A stretch of DNA of 64,000 nt. Origin: an uncultured Oscillospiraceae bacterium (lineage in GTDB: Bacteria > Bacillota > Clostridia > Oscillospirales > Oscillospiraceae). The stretch covers positions 1 through 64,000 of the forward strand of contig CANQMW010000001.1 of assembly GCA_947625045.1 (NCBI GenBank), written 5' to 3'. Positions 2,182 to 35,841 of this stretch are shown here, one piece after another (within the stretch, counting starts at the first letter, position 1; every line of letters begins with the position of its first letter). The notes below the pieces were generated by a model. The model was given only the letters and a program-made list of their open reading frames with translations. It was not told the DNA's origin and made no database searches. Both the position numbers and the translations under genes were made by a program.

Positions 2182-2592
2182 GTTCAAAAGCGGTGTATCT
2201 CTGATAACGCCCGGCCGTGCTGGGCGGCGTGCGCGCCGCCAATGCGTGGCTCCGCTCGCCGAATTACAACAACAGCAACAACTTCTGCAATGTCAACACG
2301 GACGGGTCTGCCAACAACAACAACGCCAACAATTCCCTCGCGATGCTGGCCGGATTTTGCATTGCCGGGTCACACGGAGTAGCCGAAAGGTGAAAGACGA
2401 CCCTTGCAAAAGGAGAGATACTTCCGGGGCGAGAGCCCGAAACTGACCGCTGATGCTCCTGCACGGACGCTGCTTGCATGGCGGGGGATGTGCCTTACCC
2501 CGTTTCATGTGCCGGAGCAAAGCAGTCTGGACGGCACCCTACAAGAGGCTGTACGGCGGTCGAATAACTCATTTTTTGGGGAGGCGGAAAGC
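2182..2592 (+). ncRNA. DGR template RNA region (TR plus flanking spacers)
   Basis: This 411-bp interval between avd and the RT has no credible gene. It holds the template repeat, a ~50-nt upstream spacer and a ~235-nt downstream spacer. In the Bordetella phage DGR the RNA used for cDNA synthesis spans the end of avd, the TR and a ~140-nt spacer, so this block is the expected template RNA. Exact RNA ends cannot be seen. An open frame from TTG 2404 runs into the RT frame but has no start context. Confidence 0.7.
2234..2357 (+). repeat. DGR template repeat (TR)
   Basis: This is the adenine-rich partner of the VR at 1305-1428. It is built largely of AAC/AAT codons in the VR reading frame (14 Asn codons), the usual design for maximum amino-acid diversity when A is randomised without making stop codons. 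Identity ends at 2357, where TTTGC in the TR and TTTGCC context in the VR diverge. Confidence 0.97.
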
Positions 2593-3750
2593 ATGACGAG
2601 CGAGGAGCGCCGGGAAGGGCGATACCAGCGCCGTCAGGCCGCCCGCCGGCGGCGGCGCGAGGCCCGGTGCGAGGCGCTGGGCTCCCTGGAGGACGTTTTC
2701 AGCTACAGGCGGATGTTCTTCTACGGGAAGAAGTGCTGCAACGGCGTCCGCTGGAAGCAGAGCACCCAAAACTTTGAGCTTCACCTTTTCTCGGGAACGG
2801 CTGTCCGGCGGAGGAAGATCCTGCGGCGGCAATACCGCGCCAAGCGCTGCATCCACTTCATCATTCAGGAGCGGGGCAAGACCCGCCCCATCGACGCGCC
2901 CCACATCACGGACCGGCAGATACACAAACTGTTCTGCAATGAGGTCCTTATCCCCCTGTACACCCCCGCCATGATCCATGACAACGGGGCCAGCCGCAAG
3001 GGAATGGGCCTGCACTACCAGTACAGGCGCCTGGCCGATCAACTGCGGTGGCATTACCGGCGGTACGGACGGACCGGCGGCGTGGCCACGCTGGATCTAA
3101 AGCAGTTCTTCCCGGGCGCGCCCCGGTGGGTCATCTTCCAGCGCCACGCCCGGTATATCACCAACGGGGACCTGCGCCAGCTCGCGGACCGGATCGTGGA
3201 CCAGGCGCCGGCCACGGCCCCGGGCCGGGGTATGCCCCTTGGCCTGGAGCCCAGCCAGCAGGAGATGGTAAGCCTGCCGTCGTCGGTGGATAACTGGCTG
3301 AAATGCCAGGTAGGCGCTCACTGTGCAGGGCACTACATGGACGACTATGTGATAATCATGCCGGATGTGGAACGGCTGAAAGCCGTGGTCCGGGAGATGG
3401 TCCGCCGGTTCGAGGCTATGGGGATCCGGGTCAACAAGCGCAAGTGCAAGATCACGCCCCTGACGGAGCCGTTCCGGTTCTGCAAGGCACGGTTCACACT
3501 GACGGAGAGCGGGCGCGTCATCATCAACGGCAGCCGGGACGGGATAAAGCGGGCCCGCCGGAAGCTGAAAATGTTTCATCGGGAGGTGGAGGCCGGCCGG
3601 CGGAGCCTGGCGGGCGTCCACGACTTCATGAACAGCCACGAGGCTTACTACAGGAACTTCAACGACCACGGCCGTCTGCTGCGGCTGCGGCGGCTACATC
3701 ATGCTATTTTTGGAGGTGCATCATGTACAGAGTTATCAAAGACGGCGTAA
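2593..3750 (+). CDS. DGR reverse transcriptase
   Basis: A 385-residue retron/group-II-like RT of the DGR class that makes adenine-mutagenised cDNA from the TR RNA. Visible motifs, numbered from ATG 2593: LDLKQFF (167-173) carries the first metal-binding Asp, GLEPSQ (217-222) matches the DGR-specific (I/V/L)GxxxSQ form of RT motif 4, and YMDD (248-251) is the catalytic box. There is a basic N-terminus and a basic thumb. I chose ATG 2593 because GGGAGGCGG lies 7 nt upstream. The longer frame from TTG 2404 would run through the template RNA spacer. The 3' end overlaps the next gene by 28 nt. Confidence 0.95.
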   Translation: MTSEERREGRYQRRQAARRRRREARCEALGSLEDVFSYRRMFFYGKKCCNGVRWKQSTQNFELHLFSGTAVRRRKILRRQYRAKRCIHFIIQERGKTRPIDAPHITDRQIHKLFCNEVLIPLYTPAMIHDNGASRKGMGLHYQYRRLADQLRWHYRRYGRTGGVATLDLKQFFPGAPRWVIFQRHARYITNGDLRQLADRIVDQAPATAPGRGMPLGLEPSQQEMVSLPSSVDNWLKCQVGAHCAGHYMDDYVIIMPDVERLKAVVREMVRRFEAMGIRVNKRKCKITPLTEPFRFCKARFTLTESGRVIINGSRDGIKRARRKLKMFHREVEAGRRSLAGVHDFMNSHEAYYRNFNDHGRLLRLRRLHHAIFGGASCTELSKTA

Positions 3751-7937: not shown

Positions 7938-8147
7938 ATGAAGAAGAGAAAACTGAACGTGGAGGAGAATACCAAGCTGGCCCGGGCGGCCGGCAAGACC
8001 CGCCATCAGACCGGGTATCACAAGAAGATCAAGAACCCCTCGACCAACTACGTGGGGGACGTGCATAAGGCTTTCTGTAAGCGGTGCATGGCCTACAACA
8101 AGCGGTGCCCGCTGGGCCCCGGCAAAATGAGCACCTGTTCCCTGTAA
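7938..8147 (+). CDS. Small basic Cys-containing protein
   Basis: A 69-residue Lys-rich protein 20 nt after the recombinase with a good GGGGAGG site. The C-terminal half has four Cys (CKRC, then two more), compatible with a small zinc-binding fold. Probably co-transcribed with the recombinase. No family recognised. Confidence 0.6.
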   Translation: MKKRKLNVEENTKLARAAGKTRHQTGYHKKIKNPSTNYVGDVHKAFCKRCMAYNKRCPLGPGKMSTCSL

Positions 8148-8152
8148 AAGAC

Positions 8153-8185
8153 GGCCCTCGGAACGCTCCGGGGGCCGCTATTTTT
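8153..8185 (+). terminator. Terminator of the + strand phage genes
   Basis: A 9-bp stem (GGCCCTCGG/CCGGGGGCC, one G-T pair) with a 6-nt loop, then GCTATTTTT. It follows the stop at 8147. Confidence 0.8.
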
Positions 8186-8454
8186 ATGCCCATTTGTCCC
8201 AGTCTAGGGGCGTTTATTTTACATATTAAGGCATGGTAAAACACAGTTGGGGCGAAAACCGTCAAAGCCCTGATACGCTGGGAAAAACCGGGCCCATATG
8301 TGTTTAACACAACCTCCTATTATGAATAACTCAGGATAGGGGCGGCGGGAGCTCTGGTAAGGACATCCATGCCCCTGCCAAAATGGACCTGTCCGTATGT
8401 TTTCGCGGCGTCACGAAAACATGTTGGCGGCGCCACCAAATTGATCCGGCATAG
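8186..8454. other. Convergent intergenic stretch without a gene
   Basis: No credible gene. It contains a GTGTTTAACAC palindrome (~8300) and a hairpin with 9-bp perfect arms ATGTTTTCG/CGAAAACAT at 8397-8422. It lies between the last + gene and the end of the - operon, near the recombinase, so an attachment or resolution site is possible but not shown. Confidence 0.4.
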
Positions 8455-8487
8455 AAAAACAGCCCGCAGGAAGGACCTGCAAGCTGT
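8455..8487 (-). terminator. Terminator of the - strand operon
   Basis: Read on the - strand: ACAGC, internal loop, GCAGG, TCCTT loop, CCTGC, internal loop, GCTGT, then TTTTT. It lies ~40 nt after the last gene of the operon. Confidence 0.75.
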
Positions 8488-8491
8488 CTCA

Positions 8492-8531
8492 AATGATCCG
8501 GCGGCGTTGCCCGGAATGATCCGGCGGCGTC
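8492..8531 (-). repeat. Two copies of a short ACGCCGCCRGATCATT motif
   Basis: Copies at 8492-8508 and 8515-8531. The second includes the stop codon of the 48-residue gene. Related copies at 10411-10427 and 11812-11828 lie just 3' of two hammerhead ribozymes in front of ribosome sites. Confidence 0.6.
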
Positions 8532-8676
8532 ACCGGCGGCGGCCGACGCGCCACACCACGTCCACGCCGTGCCCCTCGTCACGCGGGGGCTTGGCAGCGC
8601 TGTCACCCCCGCGGCATATGCCGTAGACGATCAGCGCCACGCCAATGACGGCCAGTAGAATAAATATAATAAGCAT
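8530..8676 (-). CDS. 48-residue single-pass membrane protein
   Basis: A small protein beginning MLIIFILLAVIGVALIVYG: one membrane helix, then a basic/acidic cytoplasmic tail ending in RRR. Start ATG 8676 lies one base after the TAA of the upstream regulator, and its GGAGG is formed by the end of that gene, so translation is coupled. Short, but start signal and hydrophobic pattern are convincing. Function unknown. Confidence 0.6.
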   Translation of the reverse strand: MLIIFILLAVIGVALIVYGICRGGDSAAKPPRDEGHGVDVVWRVGRRR

Positions 8677-8677
8677 G

Positions 8678-8884
8678 TTATCCTCCGTTCCGTGATATAT
8701 CCTCTCGGATAAGGCGCTTGATATAGCTCTGAGCGTTTTTTTCTTTTCCGATCCGGTCCAATATATCAGCGTCGGTTTTTAGGTTGAACTTCAATCCTAC
8801 GTGGCGTGTGTTTTCCACGTCGTACCGCGATTTTGAGGCATTGCGCGCCCGGCGGGCTTCCTCTTCGGTATTATAGATACGCAT
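8678..8884 (-). CDS. Ribbon-helix-helix (Arc/CopG-like) DNA-binding protein
   Basis: A 68-residue basic protein with the pattern of an RHH repressor: a short strand segment (HVGLKFNLKTD), then two helices (DADILDRIGK and AQSYIKRLIREDIS). Such proteins bind palindromic operators as dimers of dimers. It has its own promoter at 8923-8951, whose -10 region is an AT palindrome, so autoregulation is likely. It may also act on the 13-bp inverted repeat at 14544-14588. ATG 8884 follows AAAGGAG. Confidence 0.7.
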   Translation of the reverse strand: MRIYNTEEEARRARNASKSRYDVENTRHVGLKFNLKTDADILDRIGKEKNAQSYIKRLIREDISRNGG

Positions 8885-8922
8885 GGTGCTGGCTCCTTTC
8901 GGTATTACCCATAATATATAAT

Positions 8923-8951
8923 ATATTAAAACTTCCCCGCGCTGCTGTCAA
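8923..8951 (-). promoter_or_regulatory. Promoter of the RHH gene
   Basis: Reading on the - strand: TTGACA (8951-8946), 17-bp spacer, TAATAT (8928-8923). The sequence from the -10 into the leader is a near-perfect AT palindrome (AATATATTATATATTAT), a plausible operator. Confidence 0.75.
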
Positions 8952-9074
8952 TCCGCGGCCGGCGGATTTTTGCGATTTTCCGCCCAGGGCGGCCCAGGCC
9001 GATGCCCCGGGCGTGGTGCCCGGGGCGGGGGGCGCGGGCCCAGGCCGGCCCAGGTCGGACCGGCCCGGGCGCCG

Positions 9075-10391
9075 TTACTGCTGGGCCGCCTGCTCGGCGA
9101 ACTGTTCCGGCGTCATGGCGTCCGCCTCCTCCGGGTCCAGCTCGGCAGCGGGCTCCGCGGCGGGCTGCTCGGCGGCCTTCTCAGGGGATTTATACCAGGT
9201 CCCGTCGTTCCATTCGGTGACGCCGATATACCAATTACCGGACCAGGGGCGTTTTATCGGTTTCCTGACAAAGGGTTTTTCATCCCCGGTCTGGAGCGTG
9301 ACGCTCTTTTCCGTGGCCCGGATGATCTTAAACGTGACCTCCTCAAAGACGCGCTTTTCCTTGTTCCAGCGGCGGCATGTGAAGGATTCCCCCACTTTGA
9401 AGGGGTGAGTCTCCGGCGCTCTCTCGCAGGGCGTCACGCTCTTGATCTCGGCATAGGCGCAGGCGAACACGGATCCCCCTATAAACTTGACCATGACGTT
9501 TTTAGGGCCGCAGGAGATGACCTCGCCGGGGCCGTACTTCTGAATATCCACGCGGTAGCCGGGCTTTACGTTCTCGGCGGAAAATTGGACGCCTCCCAGG
9601 TTATCAAGAGCCTCTTGATAATATCCCAGCTCGTCTAACAGGACCTCCAGGCGCTCCGTATCGGCGTCGATCTGCTTTTGCAGGTCCTCCGGGGACAGGG
9701 TGACGGCCCAGCCGTATTTATCGCGGGGCTCCCCGCCGGCGGCGATGGTCTCAAGATAGCTTTCATACTCCTTGATCCGGCCGCCCACCTTGCGGATGCC
9801 GCTTTCTCTCTCTTTGATACGGCGCATGATAAATCCCTTGTCCTGCAGCTCCTTGGCCGCGGCGGTGGTCCGGGCGGTGGCGGCGCGCTCTTTCCAGTAT
9901 TCGGACCGGCGCAGCTCGTCAAAGCCTTTTTCATAGGCCGCAAACATCTTCTCGCGGCGGCGGGTAAAGGCCCGGCCGGCGGCGCTGTCAATGTTCGGTT
10001 GGGTGAAAAATGCCGTGTCGCCCTTTTCGTGCATGGCGTTTATAGGCGCCTGCAGCCTTTCGCCTTTCCTCTCGGCGGCCTCGGCCCGGCCCTCGTACCG
10101 GTCCGCGCGGCGCTCAGCGCGCTCTTGCTTCCGGGCTTGCTGCTCGGCAAAAGACAGCCTCTCGCCCTCCGTCCCGGCGTCCTCCAGGCCGATGCTCTCC
10201 GCAACCTTCCGGGCATAGTACAGGTTCGGTTCCTTGGCGCGGCTGATCCAGCAGCCGGACCGGCGCCCCCACAAGAAATTGCTTTTGATCTCGGATTTCT
10301 GCGCGTCGGTCAGGGCGGCATAGGTGGATTTTTCAAAGTGCAGCTCCAGTTTGCCCGTTTCCTTGTTCAGGATGAAATAATTTTCGCTCAT
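9075..10391 (-). CDS. DUF3560 domain protein
   Basis: A 438-residue protein found on phages and conjugative elements. Residues ~75-125 are the charged ERAERRADRYEGRAEAAERK segment typical of DUF3560, followed by a coiled-coil-rich middle (~140-270) and a C-terminal half with two small beta-rich segments that resemble YdfB/KOW-like modules of mobile elements. The extreme C-terminus (ADAMTPEQFAEQAAQQ) matches the ends of two neighbouring proteins. ATG 10391 follows AAAAGGAG and lies 42 nt after the predicted cleavage site of a hammerhead ribozyme. Biochemical role unknown. Confidence 0.75.
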   Translation of the reverse strand: MSENYFILNKETGKLELHFEKSTYAALTDAQKSEIKSNFLWGRRSGCWISRAKEPNLYYARKVAESIGLEDAGTEGERLSFAEQQARKQERAERRADRYEGRAEAAERKGERLQAPINAMHEKGDTAFFTQPNIDSAAGRAFTRRREKMFAAYEKGFDELRRSEYWKERAATARTTAAAKELQDKGFIMRRIKERESGIRKVGGRIKEYESYLETIAAGGEPRDKYGWAVTLSPEDLQKQIDADTERLEVLLDELGYYQEALDNLGGVQFSAENVKPGYRVDIQKYGPGEVISCGPKNVMVKFIGGSVFACAYAEIKSVTPCERAPETHPFKVGESFTCRRWNKEKRVFEEVTFKIIRATEKSVTLQTGDEKPFVRKPIKRPWSGNWYIGVTEWNDGTWYKSPEKAAEQPAAEPAAELDPEEADAMTPEQFAEQAAQQ

Positions 10392-10432
10392 GGTGTTGGC
10401 TCCTTTTCAGAATGATTTTGCGGCGTTGGTCT

Positions 10433-10488
10433 CCCGCGACGGCCCGGGGCCGTTTCGGGCCGTGACCGGCGGCCCATCGTCAGGCGGG
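10433..10488 (-). ncRNA. Type I hammerhead ribozyme, copy 1
   Basis: Read 5'-3' on the - strand: stem I CCCGC, core CTGACGA, one extra T, stem II GGGCCG/CGGCCC with loop CCGGTCA, core GAAA, stem III CGGCC/GGCCG with a 3-nt loop, then TC, then stem I GCGGG. The cleavage triplet is GTC, and the predicted cut falls between 10438 and 10437. All core bases of the hammerhead consensus (CTGANGA, GAAA, NTH) are present. The TGA of the core is the stop codon of the upstream gene. Confidence 0.9.
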
Positions 10489-10878
10489 CAGGTTATTTAT
10501 AAATTCCTCCGGGTTCATCACCGGGCTCACGGCGGGCAGCGCGGCGGGCTTTGCCGGCGCCGGCTTGGTCTGCTCCGGCTTGGCCGCGGCGGCCGGGGTG
10601 GGATTTTTCCGGGGCCTTCCCCGGGGCCGCTTTGGGGCGGCCGGGTCCGGGGCGGGATTTTTCCGGGGCCGCCCGGGCCCGCGCTTGGGCTCAGCCGGTG
10701 TGGCAGCTTTGGCCGGCGGGGCGGGCTTGGATGATGCGGCGGGCTCCCGGCGGGGCGGCGTCTGCTTCTTTGGCGCTTCGTTTTCGCCGCCGGCAACAAG
10801 CGCCAGGATGAAACAGGCCGCCAGGAACAGGACCGCAACAAGGGGATTTGAATATATCAAGAATAAAAGCTCTGTCAT
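10480..10878 (-). CDS. Membrane-anchored protein with two AT-hook motifs
   Basis: A 132-residue protein. Residues ~3-31 are one membrane helix. The rest is a Pro/Ala/Lys-rich disordered tail with two AT-hook-like motifs (KRGPGRPRKNP and KRPRGRPRKNP) that bind AT-rich minor grooves in other proteins. It ends in VMNPEEFINNLPA, related to neighbours' C-termini. This suggests tethering element DNA to the membrane, which is inference. Start ATG 10878 is chosen for GGGAGG upstream. The stop codon lies inside the next hammerhead core. Confidence 0.65.
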   Translation of the reverse strand: MTELLFLIYSNPLVAVLFLAACFILALVAGGENEAPKKQTPPRREPAASSKPAPPAKAATPAEPKRGPGRPRKNPAPDPAAPKRPRGRPRKNPTPAAAAKPEQTKPAPAKPAALPAVSPVMNPEEFINNLPA

Positions 10879-10893
10879 GTTGATACCTCCCAT

Positions 10894-11793
10894 TCAGGCC
10901 GCCAGCGCGGCGGCAAATTCCTCCGGGGTCATGGCGTCCCGGGCCGCCAGTTCCTCAAACTGCTCGGGGGTCAGCTCGGCGGCGGCCTCCGCCTCGGCCG
11001 GCGCGGGGTCCGGGGCATATACTCCGGGCGCAATGTCCGCTTCCTTACGGACAGGCAGTAACAGGGCGTCCCCGGCGGCGTCAATGACGTAGATGCGGCG
11101 GCCGGCCGGGCTGGGGCTCGCGTTGTAATACCATTTCCCGGCGGGGAAAAGCTGGAGAAGATCACGCAGGCAGGACACCTCCGCGGCGGGCTTTCCGGGG
11201 CCGAAGTCATACGGGCGGTTTTCCCGGCATTGCCTGTTCAGCGCGGCGCGAATCTTTAAATCTGCTTCGGTGGGCGGCGTCAGCGGCTCCAGGCCGTTCA
11301 TGTCTCCCATGGCGGCGGCCACGTTCAGGGGGTCAAGCGGTTTCCCAACTTCCACGCCAGATATAACACGGTTAAACCGGTAAAGGCGGTAGCCGTCCGT
11401 GGCGCACATCTTCCCCGTGGGGGCGTCGATCCATGCGGATCGATAGTCCGGGCGGTTTCTCAGGTGCTTTTCCTTGAAGAGCCGATTGATAACAAGAGCT
11501 GCTTTCCGGTCCTCTTTGCTTTCCGGGGTGTTCTTCCTGTTGTACTTGGCCCATGCTGCCTGTATGGATTTCACGCGCTTATGCTCGGCGGCGTTCTTCG
11601 CGTACCTTCCCAGCGTCGGCATTGCCTCGGATATGCGCTTTACGGTCTCGGCGTTGCCGGGGCGGTGCTCGTTCTCCTGCAATAGTTTAAACATCGCCTT
11701 CACGTTGGCGGCCGGGGCAATAGCAAGCCACTCCGGCGTAAAGCTGAGATATCCTGTGCCGTGCTCCACGGTGATAAGGTCAGAGTTGCACAG
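10894..11793 (-). CDS. Hypothetical element protein with probable CTG start
   Basis: A ~299-residue soluble protein of unknown family: mixed alpha/beta N-terminal half (residues 1-150), a middle with GKMCATDGYRLYRFNR, and an acidic Ala/Pro/Glu-rich tail ending in two TPEQF/TPEEF motifs. No ATG or GTG is well placed. AGGAGCCAACAC is followed by CTG at 11793 where three sister genes have the same leader followed by ATG, so CTG is the likely start (TTG 11811 lies before the ribosome site). It follows hammerhead copy 2. Confidence 0.6.
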   Translation of the reverse strand: MCNSDLITVEHGTGYLSFTPEWLAIAPAANVKAMFKLLQENEHRPGNAETVKRISEAMPTLGRYAKNAAEHKRVKSIQAAWAKYNRKNTPESKEDRKAALVINRLFKEKHLRNRPDYRSAWIDAPTGKMCATDGYRLYRFNRVISGVEVGKPLDPLNVAAAMGDMNGLEPLTPPTEADLKIRAALNRQCRENRPYDFGPGKPAAEVSCLRDLLQLFPAGKWYYNASPSPAGRRIYVIDAAGDALLLPVRKEADIAPGVYAPDPAPAEAEAAAELTPEQFEELAARDAMTPEEFAAALAA

Positions 11794-11832
11794 AGTGTTG
11801 GCTCCTCTCAAAATGATTTGGCGGCGTTGGTT

Positions 11833-11897
11833 TTCCGCGATGATCCCCGGCCGGGGATCGTTTCGGGCCGTGACCGGCGGCCCATCGTCAGGCGGAA
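11833..11897 (-). ncRNA. Type I hammerhead ribozyme, copy 2
   Basis: Stem I TTCCGC/GCGGAA, core CTGACGA, extra T, stem II GGGCCG/CGGCCC with loop CCGGTCA, GAAA, stem III with GATCCCC/GGGGATC, then ATC as cleavage triplet (cut between 11839 and 11838). Stem I pairs differently from the other copies yet stays complementary. The base next to the cleavage triplet is mispaired (C-A), so activity may be reduced. Confidence 0.85.
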
Positions 11898-11910
11898 TAA
11901 TTCGGCGGCG

Positions 11911-12084
11911 TTACTCGTTCTTGCAGCCGGTCAGCTCGTGCCACTGGACAAGGGCGGTTTTTATATTCCCGTGGATCCCTTGCAGGGCCTTCCATTCGTC
12001 CCCGGCGGGGTCTTTGAGAAGTTGCCGGTAGAAAAAATATTTTTCCAGCTCGGACAGGCTGTTAAATACTTCTTGTTCGCTCAT
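11911..12084 (-). CDS. 57-residue hypothetical protein
   Basis: Starts at ATG 12084 after GAGAGGAGG, 15 nt downstream of the preceding gene. Sequence begins MSEQEVFNSLSELEKYFFYR and ends with WHELTGCKNE. It is soluble, probably helical, with many aromatic residues. No family recognised, but the clear start signal and fit between its neighbours support it as a gene. Confidence 0.6.
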   Translation of the reverse strand: MSEQEVFNSLSELEKYFFYRQLLKDPAGDEWKALQGIHGNIKTALVQWHELTGCKNE

Positions 12085-12099
12085 GGTTCCGGCCTCCTC

Positions 12100-12807
12100 T
12101 CAGGCGTACAGGGCGCGCAGCTCGCCGGACAGGGCCACGGCGGCCCGGTGCGCCTTGCAGGTCAGTTTCTTGTTGTAGCTGTTCATGGCCTTGGAGAAGT
12201 AAAAGCCGGCCTTCTCCAGGGCCGCGGCCGCGGCGGCCGTGGGGGCGGCGTCAAAGATGACGCGGGTCCGGCTCGTTTCGGCGTCGAAGAAGATCCGCCA
12301 GCCGTTGCCGGTGATCGTCTGGCCAATGAAATCTTTGGCCGGCGCGGGCGCGGTCTGGGTGGTGGTCTCCTGGACCGTTTCGGCAGCGGGCTCCGCCTCG
12401 GCGGCGTATTCGTTGCGCTGTACGGCGATGATGTGCCCGGCGGCCGTGGTGGTGGCGGTGTAGCCTTCCGGGATCGTCTCGCGCTCCTCGGCCGGCGCGG
12501 GGGCGGTCTCCTGGGCGGGCGCCTCGGTGGTGGTCTCCTGAACCGTTTCGGCGGCGGGCTCGGCCTCGGTGGCCACTTCGGCGGCCTGGGCGGCCTCAGC
12601 CTCGTGGGCGGCCTTCTCAGCCTGGGCGGCCGCCAGTGCGGCGGCGTGGTCGGCGTGGTCCTGGGGGAATCTGACGCGCTGCACTTCCTTGGATCCGGGG
12701 ACGGTCACGAAGGCCATAACAGCGCCCGTCTTGGTGATGCTGTATGCGGCCGGGTAGGTCTTGCCGGCGACGGTGATAGAATCGGCGGTAAAAGTGAAGT
12801 TAGACAT
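12100..12807 (-). CDS. Hypothetical element protein with repeated Glu/Ala/Thr linkers
   Basis: A 235-residue protein starting at ATG 12807 after AAGGAG. It begins with a compact ~60-residue N-terminal domain (MSNFTFTADSITVAGKTYPA), followed by a long acidic Ala-rich linker that contains two near-identical AAETVQETTT blocks. The ~75-residue C-terminal domain carries GWRIFFDAETSRTRVIFDA and a Lys/Arg-rich end. The modular layout is common on conjugative elements and phages. The longer upstream frame (to ~12936) lacks a ribosome site. Function unknown. Confidence 0.6.
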   Translation of the reverse strand: MSNFTFTADSITVAGKTYPAAYSITKTGAVMAFVTVPGSKEVQRVRFPQDHADHAAALAAAQAEKAAHEAEAAQAAEVATEAEPAAETVQETTTEAPAQETAPAPAEERETIPEGYTATTTAAGHIIAVQRNEYAAEAEPAAETVQETTTQTAPAPAKDFIGQTITGNGWRIFFDAETSRTRVIFDAAPTAAAAAALEKAGFYFSKAMNSYNKKLTCKAHRAAVALSGELRALYA

Positions 12808-12818
12808 GTTATTCTCCT

Positions 12819-12839
12819 TGCCCTTTACCCTGGGCGGCG
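12819..12839 (-). repeat. CCAGGGTAAAGGGCA leader motif, copy 1
   Basis: Short hairpin (GCCC, 8-nt loop, GGGC) just upstream of the ribosome site of the gene at 12100-12807. Same motif at 13842-13862 and 14514-14535. Confidence 0.6.
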
Positions 12840-12932
12840 GGTATATATTCGTTTTGCCCTGCTGGGCTGGGGCTGGGCCGCTTTGACCGGTGCGGCCCGG
12901 CTTGGGTGTCCGGCGGGAATGGTCCCGGGGCG

Positions 12933-13829
12933 TCATGCCTCAGCGGGTTTATCATCCCGAATATCAAGTATCATCTTTACGGCCTTTTCCGCCCGGGCGG
13001 CGGCGCTGATTATCATGCGTTTATCATTCTTCAACGCCTGCAGCCAGCTTTGAACATAGGCGGCGGAATTGGTAAAGCTTTGGGGGGTCTCCAGGCCCAG
13101 CGCGTGCAGGATGGACGCGCTGCCGATCTCGGCTGTCAGTTCCTCTTTGCTGTAGCTCTCGGAGCCGAATGCCGCCAGTCCGCCGGCCGTGTTCAACCGG
13201 TTCAGGCGCGTTTTGTGGCCGGTGCTGTGTGTGGCCTCGTGAAACGCTGTCCCGTAATACTCGGCCGTATCGGTGAACTGCTCCCGCAAGGGGAGATGGA
13301 TTAAATCCCGGGCGGGGCTGTAGTAGGCCTCGTCAGATATGACCTGCTCAAAAGTGATGCCCTCGCGCTTGATGTAGCCGGTAAACGCTGCCTCGGCGGC
13401 GTCGTCGGTGGCGGGGCCGGCTGCCTCGGGCGCCTTGTCCCACTTCGGCGCTATGCCTTCGGTGTCGTCGATATGAAACACCTGGAAATAACGCAGGACC
13501 GGCAAATTGATGTAGACCGGATCCCCGCCGGCGTCAATGACCGGCTGCCCGGCGTCGTCGGTCTCGGGCTTGCGGTAGACCTTCCAGAATACCACAAACC
13601 GGGCCTTGGCGCCCTTCTTCACCTTCCCGCCGGCGTCCTTCACCTGATTGAACGTCAGATATTCGCCCGGGCGGTCAAGGATCATTTGGTTAAGCAGGGA
13701 ATAGGGCCGGCCGGTGCTGTGAGATATTGCCCCGTCGGGGCGGCCGCTCCAGGGCTTGCGCCAAGGGATAATGCCGGTCTCCAGTTGGGATATAATGCGG
13801 TTGGCTATTTCGGTATACAGGTCCTTCAT
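12933..13829 (-). CDS. ArdC-like antirestriction protein (ssDNA-binding plus zincin-like domain)
   Basis: A 298-residue protein. Residues 1-125 are the ArdC N-terminal domain (DUF1738, ssDNA binding) with IIPWRKPW and YSLLNQMIL. Residues ~150-290 are a zincin-like metallopeptidase domain with AFHEATHSTGH (HExxH zinc site) and YSKEELTAEIGS. ArdC proteins travel with conjugative plasmids and phages and protect incoming DNA from restriction or act on the host after entry. It lies between hammerhead copy 3 and the 235-residue gene. ATG 13829 has the shared AGGAGCCAACACC leader. Confidence 0.88.
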   Translation of the reverse strand: MKDLYTEIANRIISQLETGIIPWRKPWSGRPDGAISHSTGRPYSLLNQMILDRPGEYLTFNQVKDAGGKVKKGAKARFVVFWKVYRKPETDDAGQPVIDAGGDPVYINLPVLRYFQVFHIDDTEGIAPKWDKAPEAAGPATDDAAEAAFTGYIKREGITFEQVISDEAYYSPARDLIHLPLREQFTDTAEYYGTAFHEATHSTGHKTRLNRLNTAGGLAAFGSESYSKEELTAEIGSASILHALGLETPQSFTNSAAYVQSWLQALKNDKRMIISAAARAEKAVKMILDIRDDKPAEA

Positions 13830-13841
13830 GGTGTTGGCTCC

Positions 13842-13862
13842 TGCCCTTTACCCTGGGCGCCG
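13842..13862 (-). repeat. CCAGGGTAAAGGGCA leader motif, copy 2
   Basis: Immediately upstream of the ArdC ribosome site and downstream of hammerhead copy 3. Confidence 0.6.
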
Positions 13863-13885
13863 GGTCAATATTTGTGGTGCGGTCT

Positions 13886-13940
13886 CCCGCGACGCCTTGC
13901 GGCGTTTCGGCCCGTGACCGGCGGGCCATCGTCAGGCGGG
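13886..13940 (-). ncRNA. Type I hammerhead ribozyme, copy 3
   Basis: Stem I CCCGC/GCGGG, core CTGACGA, extra T, stem II GGCCCG/CGGGCC with loop CCGGTCA, GAAA, stem III CGCC-GCAA-GGCG, cleavage triplet GTC with the cut between 13891 and 13890. Stem II differs from copies 1 and 2 by paired changes on both arms, which is direct covariation support. Confidence 0.92.
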
Positions 13941-13969
13941 GAATTAAAGCGGCGTTTCAAGGTCCTCGA

Positions 13970-14122
13970 TCATTTGTTCAGTGCCTCCCAGATTATCAAG
14001 TATTCCGCGTAGCTGTCCGCGCAGATGTTCGCGGCGTCGTTCTTTGCTTCCTCGGTCTGTCCGTTGCGCTTGGCATATTCCCGGGCGGCGGTGATTTTCT
14101 CGGAGATGTTCAGTTCCTTCAT
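13970..14122 (-). CDS. 50-residue hypothetical protein
   Basis: Starts at ATG 14122 (MKELNISEKITAAREYAKRN) after AAAGGATCG. It is helical and charged, without membrane segment, and sits between hammerhead copies 4 and 3. A longer frame running through the upstream ribozyme is an artefact. Function unknown. Confidence 0.6.
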   Translation of the reverse strand: MKELNISEKITAAREYAKRNGQTEEAKNDAANICADSYAEYLIIWEALNK

Positions 14123-14168
14123 TTGTTCGATCCTTTCCGGCCTGGCGGCCTGTTTTGCTGGGCGGTCT

Positions 14169-14229
14169 CCCGCGACGATCCCGGCGGGGATCGTTTCGGC
14201 CCGTGACCGGCGGGCCATCATCAGGCGGG
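14169..14229 (-). ncRNA. Type I hammerhead ribozyme, copy 4
   Basis: Stem I CCCGC/GCGGG, core CTGATGA (the canonical form), extra T, stem II GGCCCG/CGGGCC with loop CCGGTCA, GAAA, stem III CGATCCC/GGGATCG with a 4-nt loop, cleavage triplet GTC, cut between 14174 and 14173. It is the best-paired of the four. Confidence 0.93.
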
Positions 14230-14239
14230 GCGCTGGGGA

Positions 14240-14500
14240 TCAGTTTTCGATGTCATAGCACCTGCGAATAACGCTGTTAGACAGAATATACATGATGTTC
14301 GCGACCGTCTGTCCCTCGCTGTGGCGGTTGATGTCGTCGGCTACGCGGTAGATTATTTCCGGCGTGGGGGCTGGATGGTCTCTAACGATGTCAAACATCT
14401 TGCCGTAGTCCTCGTCGTCACCCTCTGTGTAGAGATTCTCACGGATGCACATCTTCCGCACGTCTATAGTGCTCCAGTGGGTTTTTTCTATGATTTTCAT
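14240..14500 (-). CDS. 86-residue hypothetical protein, first gene of the - operon
   Basis: Starts at ATG 14500 after GAAAGGA. It has an acidic middle (TEGDDEDYGKMFDIVRDHP) and a helical C-terminus. It is the first gene behind the promoter at 14566-14594. Early position and small size suggest a regulatory or early-lysogeny protein, but there is no recognisable motif. Confidence 0.6.
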   Translation of the reverse strand: MKIIEKTHWSTIDVRKMCIRENLYTEGDDEDYGKMFDIVRDHPAPTPEIIYRVADDINRHSEGQTVANIMYILSNSVIRRCYDIEN

Positions 14501-14513
14501 GCCGTTTCCTTTC

Positions 14514-14535
14514 TGCCCTTTTACCCTGGGCGCCG
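14514..14535 (-). repeat. CCAGGGTAAAGGGCA leader motif, copy 3
   Basis: Lies between the operon promoter and the first ribosome site. One extra A in the loop compared with the other two copies. Confidence 0.6.
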
Positions 14536-14543
14536 GGCTTGTT

Positions 14544-14594
14544 TTCGGTTTTACCGACTATCGTCATTATAGCGACGGTAAAACCGAATTTCAA
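14544..14594 (-). promoter_or_regulatory. Operon promoter with 13-bp inverted-repeat operator
   Basis: On the - strand: TTGAAA (14594-14589), 17-bp spacer, TATAAT (14571-14566). A perfect 13-bp inverted repeat (arms 14544-14556 and 14576-14588, TTCGGTTTTACCG) has one arm in the spacer and the other just past the -10, so a bound repressor would block RNA polymerase. It probably drives the whole ArdC/DUF3560 operon. Confidence 0.88.
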
Positions 14595-14700
14595 GCCCCT
14601 TTTGTGAAAAAATTTTGCCGGCCGCTGTTACCCCCTACGGGGGTAAAATTTTTTGATTTTTCCGATAATAGCCCCCTGCGCCGGCTGTGCCTGGGCCCCG

Positions 14701-14988
14701 GCTGCGCCAGCGTTGCCAATGCTACCGGCCCGGCCGATGGTCCCGGGCGGCCGCTCTCAGTCCGCGCACGTATACGCACGCGCCCGGGCATGGTCCCGGC
14801 CAGCCTGGACGCGCTGCCGATCTGCAGCGGCCCGGCCGAAGGGCCCGCGCCTGAGTCCGATGATCCCGGGCCCGGGCAGGGCCGCGCCAGTGTGGCCAAT
14901 GCTGCCGGCCCGGCCGATGATCCCGGGCGGCCGCTCCCGGTCCGCGCACGCATACGCACGCGCCCGGGCATGGTCCCGGCCCGGCCCG
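14701..14988. repeat. Two direct copies of a ~108-bp GC-rich repeat, 180 bp apart
   Basis: Copies at 14701-14808 and 14881-14988 agree at most positions, each with a CGCACG(T/C)ATACGCACGCGC segment and a CCCGGGCATGGTCCCGG inverted repeat. No credible gene. It sits upstream of the - operon promoter. Such a block could be a replication or transfer origin or a packaging site. None is shown. Confidence 0.75.
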
Positions 14989-15055
14989 GTGCGGACGCTT
15001 GGCATCTTGCATAAAAGGCGATGGCCGGCCGGGCGGGGGAAATTTTTGCCGAGGA

Positions 15056-15143
15056 TTTACGCGCCCGGTCTAGTCTTTCTTACCACGTAGGTTTCTCCCC
15101 CCTATAGTCCCCCCATTTTTCGGCATTCGTCACTTTGCCGAAT
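15056..15143 (+). repeat. Leader module, copy 2 (direct)
   Basis: Matches 1619-1708 with the same order of TTTACGCGC, TACCA(C/T), CCCCCCTATAGTCCCCCCA and TTCGTCACTTTGCCGAA. TTACCA and TATAGT here are spaced by 17 bp. No gene follows. Confidence 0.7.
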
Positions 15144-15193
15144 GATCCCCGCTGACTAATCCGGGCCCAGGTCCCGCCGTCCGTCGGTGGTCT

Positions 15194-15334
15194 TTCGTCA
15201 TTTTGCCGAAGGGGCAAAAGTGGGGGGACTATAGGGGGGATTATAGCTACATCCCCCGTATACCTGTACCGCGCAAAAAACTTCGGTCCGACGGCCGGCC
15301 CTCGTCGGCGCTGTCGCTCTTTGTGCAGCTTGCC
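15194..15334 (-). repeat. Leader module, copy 3 (inverted)
   Basis: On the - strand it carries GGCAAGCTGCACAAAG, GACCGAAGTTTT and the CCCCCCTATAGTCCCCCCA box in the same order as 1565-1680, then the TTCG...CGAA quasi-palindrome. It faces copy 2 head to head across ~50 bp. Confidence 0.65.
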
Positions 15335-16105
15335 ACCACGGCAGGCGGCCTGCGTCACGGCCTGCGCCGGGCTGCAGCTGGAGCGCGGCGGCGGGCCGCG
15401 TTCCGGCCCGGTCCGGTCCGCTGGGAAGTATTGCTCTTGATCGGCGGCGGCTGCTCCGCCCCGGGCGGGCGGATGCGGGCGGCGCCCAGGTGGGCCAGGC
15501 CGGGCAGACCTGGAGCGGCTTGCATGAGGGGCGGCCCAAGTCCAGCGCCGGCGGCGGTCTCGGCGGCTGCTGCTGGCGCTGCTATCCATCAGCGGCACCA
15601 CCACGGCAGCCACGGCACACGCGCGTCATCCCATCACGCGCCCCCGCGCGCTCCGTGGATGCGCCGCCTTATGGCGGCGCGGATCCGCGCGCACCACGCG
15701 CGCCCGTTTTCTTGAACGCCCGCGCGCGTAGGTACTGTGCGCGCGTAGCGCGAACTTCGCGGGCGCTGGGAGCCCGGGAATTGCCTAGTTTTTATATTTT
15801 TTTATTTAATTTCATTCATCTTCCCAGACCCGGCTCTCGCGCCCGCGCGCCCGCGCGCGAACAAATAAAGCGGCCGGTGCTGTTCGTGTCTTTCGACGGA
15901 GGACGGGTGGTGAAATTTCGGCCTCCAGCTTTTTCATCTTCGGGTGTTCTGAGGGGGCTGAAATTTATCACACTTTTTAGCACACTTGAACGGCAACAAA
16001 CGGCAACATACGGCAAGATGGTATTGGAGAAAAAGAAGGCGGCGGCCCGTCGATCATCACGATCTCCGGGCCGCCGTCAGCGTTCCTCTCTATGAAATTC
16101 TTGAA
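15335..16105. other. Non-coding right end of the element
   Basis: Open frames here lack ribosome sites and consist of GC-rich low-complexity sequence. Seen in it: a GCGCGC-rich stretch (15690-15860) and three tandem decamers ACGGCAACAA/ACGGCAACAT/ACGGCAAGAT at 15990-16019, shortly before the tRNA cluster. The element boundary probably lies between here and 16105. No matching att repeat was found in the window. Confidence 0.45.
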
Positions 16106-35564: not shown

Positions 35565-35841
35565 ACAAAAGCGCGCTGCTCCGGCGGGAGCATTGCGCCA
35601 TGCGATGAACCGGGAGATTGCGCCGACGGGCGGGAACTTCCGGGGAGCAGTCCGGGGGCCGGAAGGCCCTGGAATCGGACGGAACGGTCAAGCTGTACCG
35701 CGTATATCGCCTGAGAGAAAAACACCGGCGGAGCCGGTATGTTTTTTGGGGCAGGGTCTGATACGCACGGAACAGTGTACAGATTTGACCGGCAGCCGTG
35801 CGGGAATACGTAAAACTCGTACAAAACAATGGAGGAAAACA
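35565..35841 (+). promoter_or_regulatory. Long rpsJ leader with attenuator-like hairpin
   Basis: About 270 nt of untranslated leader. At 35724-35747 a 6-bp hairpin ACCGGC/GCCGGT with a 3-nt loop is followed closely by six T residues, which looks like an intrinsic terminator inside the leader. No good ORF. This may be an attenuation control region. Confidence 0.55.

What the first reader, a model, noticed from the sequence alone, without database searches (positions are those of the whole stretch)
10433..14229. Four type I hammerhead ribozymes in one operon
Four - strand intergenic sequences each show CTGANGA, stem II, GAAA, stem III, GTC or ATC and a closing stem I. Stems I, II and III change sequence between copies but stay paired: stem I CCCGC/GCGGG against TTCCGC/GCGGAA, stem II GGGCCG/CGGCCC against GGCCCG/CGGGCC. 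That is direct covariation. They would cut the ArdC/DUF3560 mRNA into separate pieces with new 5' ends just ahead of the 50-residue, ArdC, 300-residue and DUF3560 genes. A repeated, self-processing operon of this kind seems little described.
Basis: partly seen in the sequence, partly recalled or inferred. Interest (0 to 1): 0.92.

Follow-up and report, generated by a model that had tools for sequence, protein, structure and literature searches.

The report
Prophage operon with self-cutting RNAs
A bacterial virus integrated in a gut-type bacterium carries, in front of one gene after another, small RNA segments predicted to cut their own messenger RNA; such operons are known, but here an unexplained RNA element shares their places.

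Summary
The four hammerheads are real. A covariance model built from 27 phage hammerheads, none from the window, finds all four (E 8e-19 to 2e-17). Each copy has one extra U between A9 and stem II, a form frequent among phage hits; no Rfam hammerhead model reaches its cut-off on them. Each predicted cut lies 45-61 nt before a start codon of one prophage operon that includes ArdC and a DUF3560-like gene. Clustered hammerheads in prophage operons, one beside ardA, were published with cleavage data in 2011 (PMC3088659), so the arrangement is not new.

New here is what shares the slots. Between ArdC and the next gene lies a RAGATH-5 RNA. In related operons the slots flanking ArdC hold type I hammerhead, type II hammerhead, pistol, RAGATH-5 or an element without Rfam match where tested ('X', 14 distinct copies, 42-75 nt before the next ATG). 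Interchange with proven ribozyme classes suggests that RAGATH-5 and X also cut RNA, which is directly testable. No activity was measured here.

The parts
14544..14588 (.). probable operon promoter: perfect 13-nt inverted repeat (TTCGGTTTTACCG ... CGGTAAAACCGAA) flanking TATAAT, like a repressor operator
   Evidence: 1 match, shuffles 0; promoter reading by eye
14240..14500 (-). 86-aa ORF, first gene, no Pfam match at E<=0.01
14164..14229 (-). hammerhead 4, predicted cut 14174|14173, 51 nt before the 50-aa ORF
   Evidence: (73.1 bits)
13970..14122 (-). 50-aa ORF, no Pfam match at E<=0.01
13881..13940 (-). hammerhead 3, predicted cut 13891|13890, 61 nt before ArdC
   Evidence: (68.9 bits)
13840..13858 (-). 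repeated leader motif GCCCAGGGTAAAGGGCAGG (also 12835-12817 and 14531-14513 with 1 and 2 mismatches)
12933..13829 (-). ArdC-type anti-restriction protein (ArdcN + MPTase-PolyVal)
   Evidence: phrog_7245
12861..12913 (-). RAGATH-5 RNA between ArdC and the 235-aa gene; candidate fifth self-cleaving element with a 5' CCGG / loop CCGG pseudoknot
   Evidence: (53.6 bits, gathering 50)
12100..12807 (-). 235-aa ORF (weak phrog_19458 primase match, E 0.00087)
11911..12084 (-). 57-aa ORF, found again in four related loci (L232, L010, L443, L445)
11829..11896 (-). hammerhead 2, predicted cut 11839|11838 after AUC, C.A mismatch in stem III, 45 nt before the ~299-aa gene
   Evidence: (68.1 bits)
10894..11793 (-). 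~299-aa ORF, apparent CTG start where the near-identical relative L443 has ATG
10480..10893 (-). 137-aa ORF; its stop codon lies inside hammerhead 1 (CUGA)
10428..10488 (-). hammerhead 1, predicted cut 10438|10437, 46 nt before the DUF3560-like gene
   Evidence: (73.2 bits)
9075..10391 (-). 438-aa protein with a sub-threshold DUF3560 match
   Evidence: 24.8 bits, cut-off 27.2

Best explanation
The four elements are type I hammerhead ribozymes of a phage subtype with one extra U between A9 and stem II and a loop II/3'-flank pseudoknot. They lie in a prophage operon transcribed from about 14560 to 9075. Each cuts its own transcript 45-61 nt before the next gene group. The upstream message would then end in the stem III hairpin with a 2',3'-cyclic phosphate, and the next message would start with a 5'-OH and a short leader with its own ribosome-binding site. 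One transcript so becomes separate mRNAs whose stability and translation are set gene by gene. The RAGATH-5 RNA between ArdC and the 235-aa gene fills the same role at the fifth junction. Shown: sequence, covariation, position, slot exchange in relatives. Inferred: promoter, cleavage, RNA ends, effect on expression, RAGATH-5 activity.
For: All four found by a model made without them, E 8e-19 to 2e-17. Covariation on 27 viral relatives: 19 of 22 pairs changed on both sides, score 0.524 against 0.129 or less when slid (stems I-III were required when rows were chosen, the pseudoknot was not). Pseudoknot of 4 or more bp in 214 of 381 loop/flank combinations, shuffled mean 100, largest 115. Cuts 45-61 nt before start codons. 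Among 11 operons with ArdC of at least 60% identity (window included), 8 carry a recognised element just upstream of ArdC (type I hammerhead 2, type II 4, pistol 1, X 1) and 8 just downstream (RAGATH-5 2, type I 3, pistol 1, X 2). Self-cleavage of this operon type is published (PMC3088659).
Against: No cleavage measured. No Rfam hammerhead model reaches its cut-off on any of the four. The extra core U could slow cleavage; activity of this subtype was not found in the passages read. One copy folds otherwise as a single sequence and one has a mismatch beside the cleavage site. The pseudoknot pairs in 66.7% of cells, its two outer pairs in fewer than half. Window/L443 and L446/L447 are near-duplicates, so slot counts are not 11 independent events, and each slot lacks a recognised element in 3 of 11. 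One of the three downstream type I hammerheads (L233) has a changed core, CCGACGA.
Confidence: 0.8

Rival explanations
1. The hammerheads are decayed or slow remnants: the extra U, the AUC copy and the start-codon change show relaxed selection, and the structures now act only as mRNA hairpins.
For: C.A mismatch in copy 2 where relative L443 pairs; CTG start where L443 has ATG; alternative fold of copy 1.
Against: Core and stems are kept in all four and in distant phages with the same U (237 of 417 distinct hits in held loci; share biased by the search patterns), with strong covariation.
Confidence: 0.12
2. The elements are primarily translation-control or protein-binding leader structures, and cleavage is incidental.
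For: They sit shortly before a Shine-Dalgarno sequence; a separate leader motif recurs three times in the operon.
Against: Type I hammerhead, type II hammerhead and pistol differ in fold or permutation and share self-cleavage, yet exchange at the same junctions.
Confidence: 0.1
3. RAGATH-5 and X are not ribozymes but unrelated leader elements that share the intergenic space.
For: No activity is known to me for RAGATH-5 (recalled); a model of X does not hit RAGATH-5; pseudoknot support is modest (one compensatory change in RAGATH-5; in X one changed pair per helix, a number that 306 of 500 shuffles also reach, although cells paired and covariation score exceed all shuffles).
Against: They replace proven ribozyme classes at orthologous junctions with similar spacing to the start codon, and repeat within one operon as hammerheads do (7 X copies; RAGATH-5 three times in one phage, two of them over the cut-off, and twice over it in another).
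Confidence: 0.5

Closest known systems
Clustered hammerhead ribozymes in prophage operons (Perreault et al. 2011, PMC3088659)
   Same: Several hammerheads between genes of one prophage transcript, anti-restriction gene among them, stem I/II pseudoknots; three arrangements cleave in vitro and one in E. coli
   Different: Different genes; here a uniform extra U after A9, and RAGATH-5, pistol and X in orthologous slots
Rfam Hammerhead_II (RF02276)
   Same: Occupies the slot upstream of ArdC in four related operons, 52-56.5 bits
   Different: The window copies are type I (ends in stem I)
Pistol ribozyme (RF02679)
   Same: Occupies slots beside ArdC in L232 and L448; strand order a-b-a'-A-rich linker-b'-hairpin resembles RAGATH-5 and X
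   Different: RAGATH-5 and X lack pistol stem P2 as drawn here, and the pistol model does not match them
RAGATH-5 (RF02685)
   Same: 12913-12861 matches at 53.6 bits over the cut-off of 50
   Different: Rfam's structure as printed has only the hairpin; a pseudoknot is proposed here

Membership tests
Hammerhead ribozyme, type I | core CUGANGA ... GAAA ... UH before the cut | tested here: met
   one extra U after A9
Hammerhead ribozyme, type I | stems I, II, III in type I order with covariation | tested here: met
Hammerhead ribozyme, type I | stem I/II tertiary contact | tested here: met
   pseudoknot, (inner pairs; outer pairs weak)
Hammerhead ribozyme, type I | Rfam hammerhead model at gathering score (detection aid, not a defining feature) | tested here: not met
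   one search also reports no hammerhead in 11 loci, 7 of which hold canonical-core copies by the descriptor (L103, L034, L075, L136, L130, L218, L236), so the miss does not single out this subtype
Hammerhead ribozyme, type I | self-cleavage | not testable with these tools
   needs in vitro transcription
RAGATH-5 (RF02685) | covariance model over gathering score | tested here: met
   53.6 bits against 50
RAGATH-5 as a ribozyme | self-cleavage | not testable with these tools
   inferred from slot exchange only
Element X as RAGATH-5 | match to RF02685 | tested here: not met
   model R2 of X does not hit RAGATH-5 either

The most novel reading that the evidence does not exclude
The intergenic slots of these prophage operons are interchangeable sockets for any RNA that cuts itself. 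By that rule RAGATH-5 and the unlisted element X are self-cleaving ribozymes. Both can be drawn as a pseudoknot of strand order a-b-a'-A-rich linker-b'-CCCA, usually followed by a hairpin, so X may be a divergent or parallel form of RAGATH-5 with a pistol-like layout: a new ribozyme class or superfamily.
Probability: 0.4. Interest if true: 0.82.

Novelty: new member of a known kind. Interest (0 to 1): 0.52.

Why it matters
Bacterial ribozymes are plentiful and the reason for their gene associations was still called unknown in 2023 (PMC10085705, passage). Orthologous operons in which different ribozyme classes replace one another at the same junctions indicate that the selected property is the cut itself, not the fold. 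The same rule nominates two unproven RNAs, RAGATH-5 and X, for a simple cleavage assay. The window gives a compact test case with five junctions in one transcript.

Tried and rejected
A broad TAGAA-plus-pseudoknot scan and a general pseudoknot descriptor were mostly noise; only instances with the tight X layout were kept (14 distinct). L466 and the other new loci gave no further X among the rows printed by the layout parse, and L466 scored E 0.92 with the X model. Weak RAGATH-5 hits in G570, G019 and a third one in G510 were dropped (the G570 stretch looks coding by eye); the third G507 hit, 45.6 bits and below the cut-off, was kept in the alignment. Two RAGATH papers are not held; what I say of them is recalled. 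Left out of the slot count: ten ArdC loci at 47-56% identity, two partial matches (L464, L465) and all loci at 41% or less. Of the ten, one has a type I hammerhead upstream of ArdC (L236) and two have pistols on the other strand (L453, L463); the other seven showed no ribozyme there. L238-L268 were scanned only with the hammerhead script and gave no row in the part of its cut output that I saw.
Full report
OBSERVATION. The core with stem II occurs exactly four times in the window, all on the - strand, and shuffles give none. A hammerhead descriptor finds the same four in the window, and none in 20 random windows of the same dinucleotide make-up. A covariance model (R1) from 27 viral hammerheads, none from the window, scores them 68.1-73.2 bits, E 7.9e-19 to 2.4e-17; the next window hit has E 0.53. 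The tight pattern occurs in 3 of 199 genomes searched among relatives, the own one included.

ANATOMY. Order on the RNA: stem I 5' strand, CUGAYGA, one U, stem II (6 bp) with loop CCGGUCA, GAAA, stem III, UC, cut, stem I 3' strand, then (G)ACC. The loop GGU(C) can pair with the (G)ACC behind stem I. Over 381 distinct loop/flank combinations from relatives, 214 allow 4 or more pairs; shuffling flanks among loops gives a mean of 100 and a maximum of 115. On the 27-row alignment, 19 of 22 pairs change on both sides, with score 0.524 against 0.129 or less for slid partners. All five pseudoknot pairs are among the 19, but the pseudoknot pairs in only 66.7% of cells, and its two outer pairs fail in 14 and 18 of 27 rows. 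Rows were chosen by a script that demanded stems I-III, so only the pseudoknot is free of that selection. The extra U after A9 is present in 237 of 417 distinct hits in held loci, no insert in 173, another letter in 7; several search patterns contained that U, so the share is biased. Insertions of one or two nucleotides beside CUGAnGA are already known (PMC10085705, section 13 read).

RESULTS AGAINST. Rfam reports no hammerhead in the window at gathering. Over 8000-16000 at E<=5 there is one Hammerhead_II alignment, 23 bits, overlapping copy 1; over copies 3 and 4 at E<=10, one of 15 bits. Eleven other loci, seven of them with canonical-core copies by my descriptor, also gave no hammerhead at gathering, so the miss reflects the library rather than this subtype. 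Copy 1 folds otherwise alone (z -0.37); copies 2-4 fold as hammerheads (z -2.05, -1.32, -2.08). Copy 2 has a C.A mismatch next to the cut.

CONTEXT. The genes to the left include phage genes: reverse transcriptase, holin, endolysin, integrase. The operon runs 14500 to 9075 on the - strand, with a perfect inverted repeat around TATAAT at 14544-14588 and a cluster of five tRNAs further upstream. ArdC is firm; the DUF3560 match is below the cut-off. Predicted cuts lie 51, 61, 45 and 46 nt before the 50-aa, ArdC, ~299-aa and DUF3560-like starts. Model R1 finds 12 hammerheads in the whole genome at E<=0.1 (150 of 2151 first-look candidates scored, so 12 may be a lower bound): the four here and eight on three other contigs. 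On two of those contigs they adjoin amidoligase genes.

THE FIFTH ELEMENT. RAGATH-5 lies at 12913-12861 between ArdC and the 235-aa gene; the genome search found no other at E<=0.01 (150 of 2244 candidates scored). Of 24 records searched, it also occurs in sister genome L443, three times in one phage (two over the cut-off) and twice over the cut-off in another; both phages carry an extra-U hammerhead on the same strand nearby. A second batch of 48 viral records had none over the cut-off, so RAGATH-5 is far rarer than the hammerheads.

SLOT EXCHANGE. ArdC relatives were fetched from viral contigs (38 loci) and genomes (23 loci). For the 11 operons (window included) with ArdC of at least 60% identity, the stretch just upstream of ArdC holds type I hammerhead (window, L443), type II hammerhead (L010, L445, L446, L447), pistol (L232) or X (L444); L448 shows nothing recognised, and in L233 and L449 it reads by eye like a promoter. 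The stretch just downstream holds RAGATH-5 (window, L443), type I hammerhead (L232, L233 with core CCGACGA, L445), pistol (L448) or X (L444, L449); L010, L446 and L447 show nothing recognised. Window/L443 and L446/L447 are near-duplicates. Sequence behind the slot (about AACGCC...AAATCATTTTGA...GGAGCCAACACCATG) is much alike whichever element precedes it in several of these loci (by eye).

ELEMENT X. Fourteen distinct copies in four records (L444 seven, L449 three, the L017/L467 record two, L193 two). No Rfam match covers them up to E=5 in the three loci so tested, L444, L449 and L017. Counted from the end of the second pseudoknot strand, the next ATG lies 42-75 nt on, 13 of the 14 within 42-52, behind what looks like a Shine-Dalgarno sequence. 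Layout: 5-bp helix, loop strand pairing beyond an A-rich linker (pseudoknot), then usually CCCA and a hairpin. Each helix has one pair changed on both sides; cells paired (99.2%) and covariation score (0.185) exceed all 500 shuffles, the number of changed pairs does not (306 of 500 reach it). One of 400 genomes of the family has the tight pattern, with seven copies, and of the four viral stretches with it three hold a copy that I accept; L466 was rejected. RAGATH-5 can be drawn with the same strand order, its 5' CCGG pairing with the loop CCGG; one of seven rows changes this to GCGG/CCGC. Models do not link the two, so kinship is a hypothesis.

LITERATURE. Perreault et al. 2011 (PMC3088659; sections 6 and 8 and passages read) describe clustered hammerheads in prophages, in vitro cleavage of three tandem arrangements, cleavage in E. 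coli of one that flanks ardA, and stem I/II pseudoknots. Eckert et al. 2023 (PMC10085705; [quoted passage not shown] The pistol paper (PMC4604425; passages read) gives the pseudoknot and phage association. Passages of PMC11974997 and PMC11507696 concern RAGATH-18 or RAGATH without number. In the held open-licence library, hammerhead with DUF3560 found 0 papers, with ArdC 2 (listing only), and RAGATH 30, of which 20 were listed and none of those titles is on RAGATH-5. That RAGATH-5 is unproven is recalled.

VERDICT. Real, well-supported type I hammerheads in an operon of a published kind; new member of a known kind. The interest lies in the exchange of ribozyme classes at orthologous junctions and in the two unproven elements that this singles out.

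Noticed in passing
L444 7657, 7923, 8904, 9570, 10954, 12021, 12497; L449 8905, 9574, 9959; L017 4274-; L193 11645- and 9780-; L467 11835-: Element X: repeated pseudoknot RNA without Rfam match in the loci tested, each copy shortly before an ATG; it replaces ribozymes beside ArdC in L444 and L449.
   Followed up: partly
own genome contigs C4, C5, C6 (L534 6109, 7071, 7690, 8030; L535 6555-, 5593-; L536 6066): Eight more type I hammerheads elsewhere in the host genome by model R1 (seven re-found by the descriptor script at the places given), several in tandem beside amidoligase genes.
   Followed up: partly
L233 about 8928-8996 and 9649-9718; L446 2692-2760; L536 6066: Hammerheads with core CCGANGA, that is U4 changed to C, otherwise intact; activity would be worth testing.
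   Followed up: no
window 14531-14513, 13858-13840, 12835-12817: Repeated leader motif GCCCAGGGTAAARGGCAGG just before three ribosome-binding sites; a like motif follows one RAGATH-5 in phage G507.
   Followed up: partly
window 11793-11791: Apparent CTG start codon of the ~299-aa gene where the near-identical relative L443 has ATG.
   Followed up: yes
window 14544-14588: Perfect inverted repeat flanking a TATAAT box, likely a repressor-controlled promoter of the operon.
   Followed up: partly
window 2365-2581 and 2404-3750: RT-2 RNA (171.6 bits) at the 5' side of a prophage reverse transcriptase gene.
   Followed up: no
window 35597-35674: S10-Clostridia ribosomal protein leader just over its cut-off (35.6 against 35.1 bits).
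   Followed up: no
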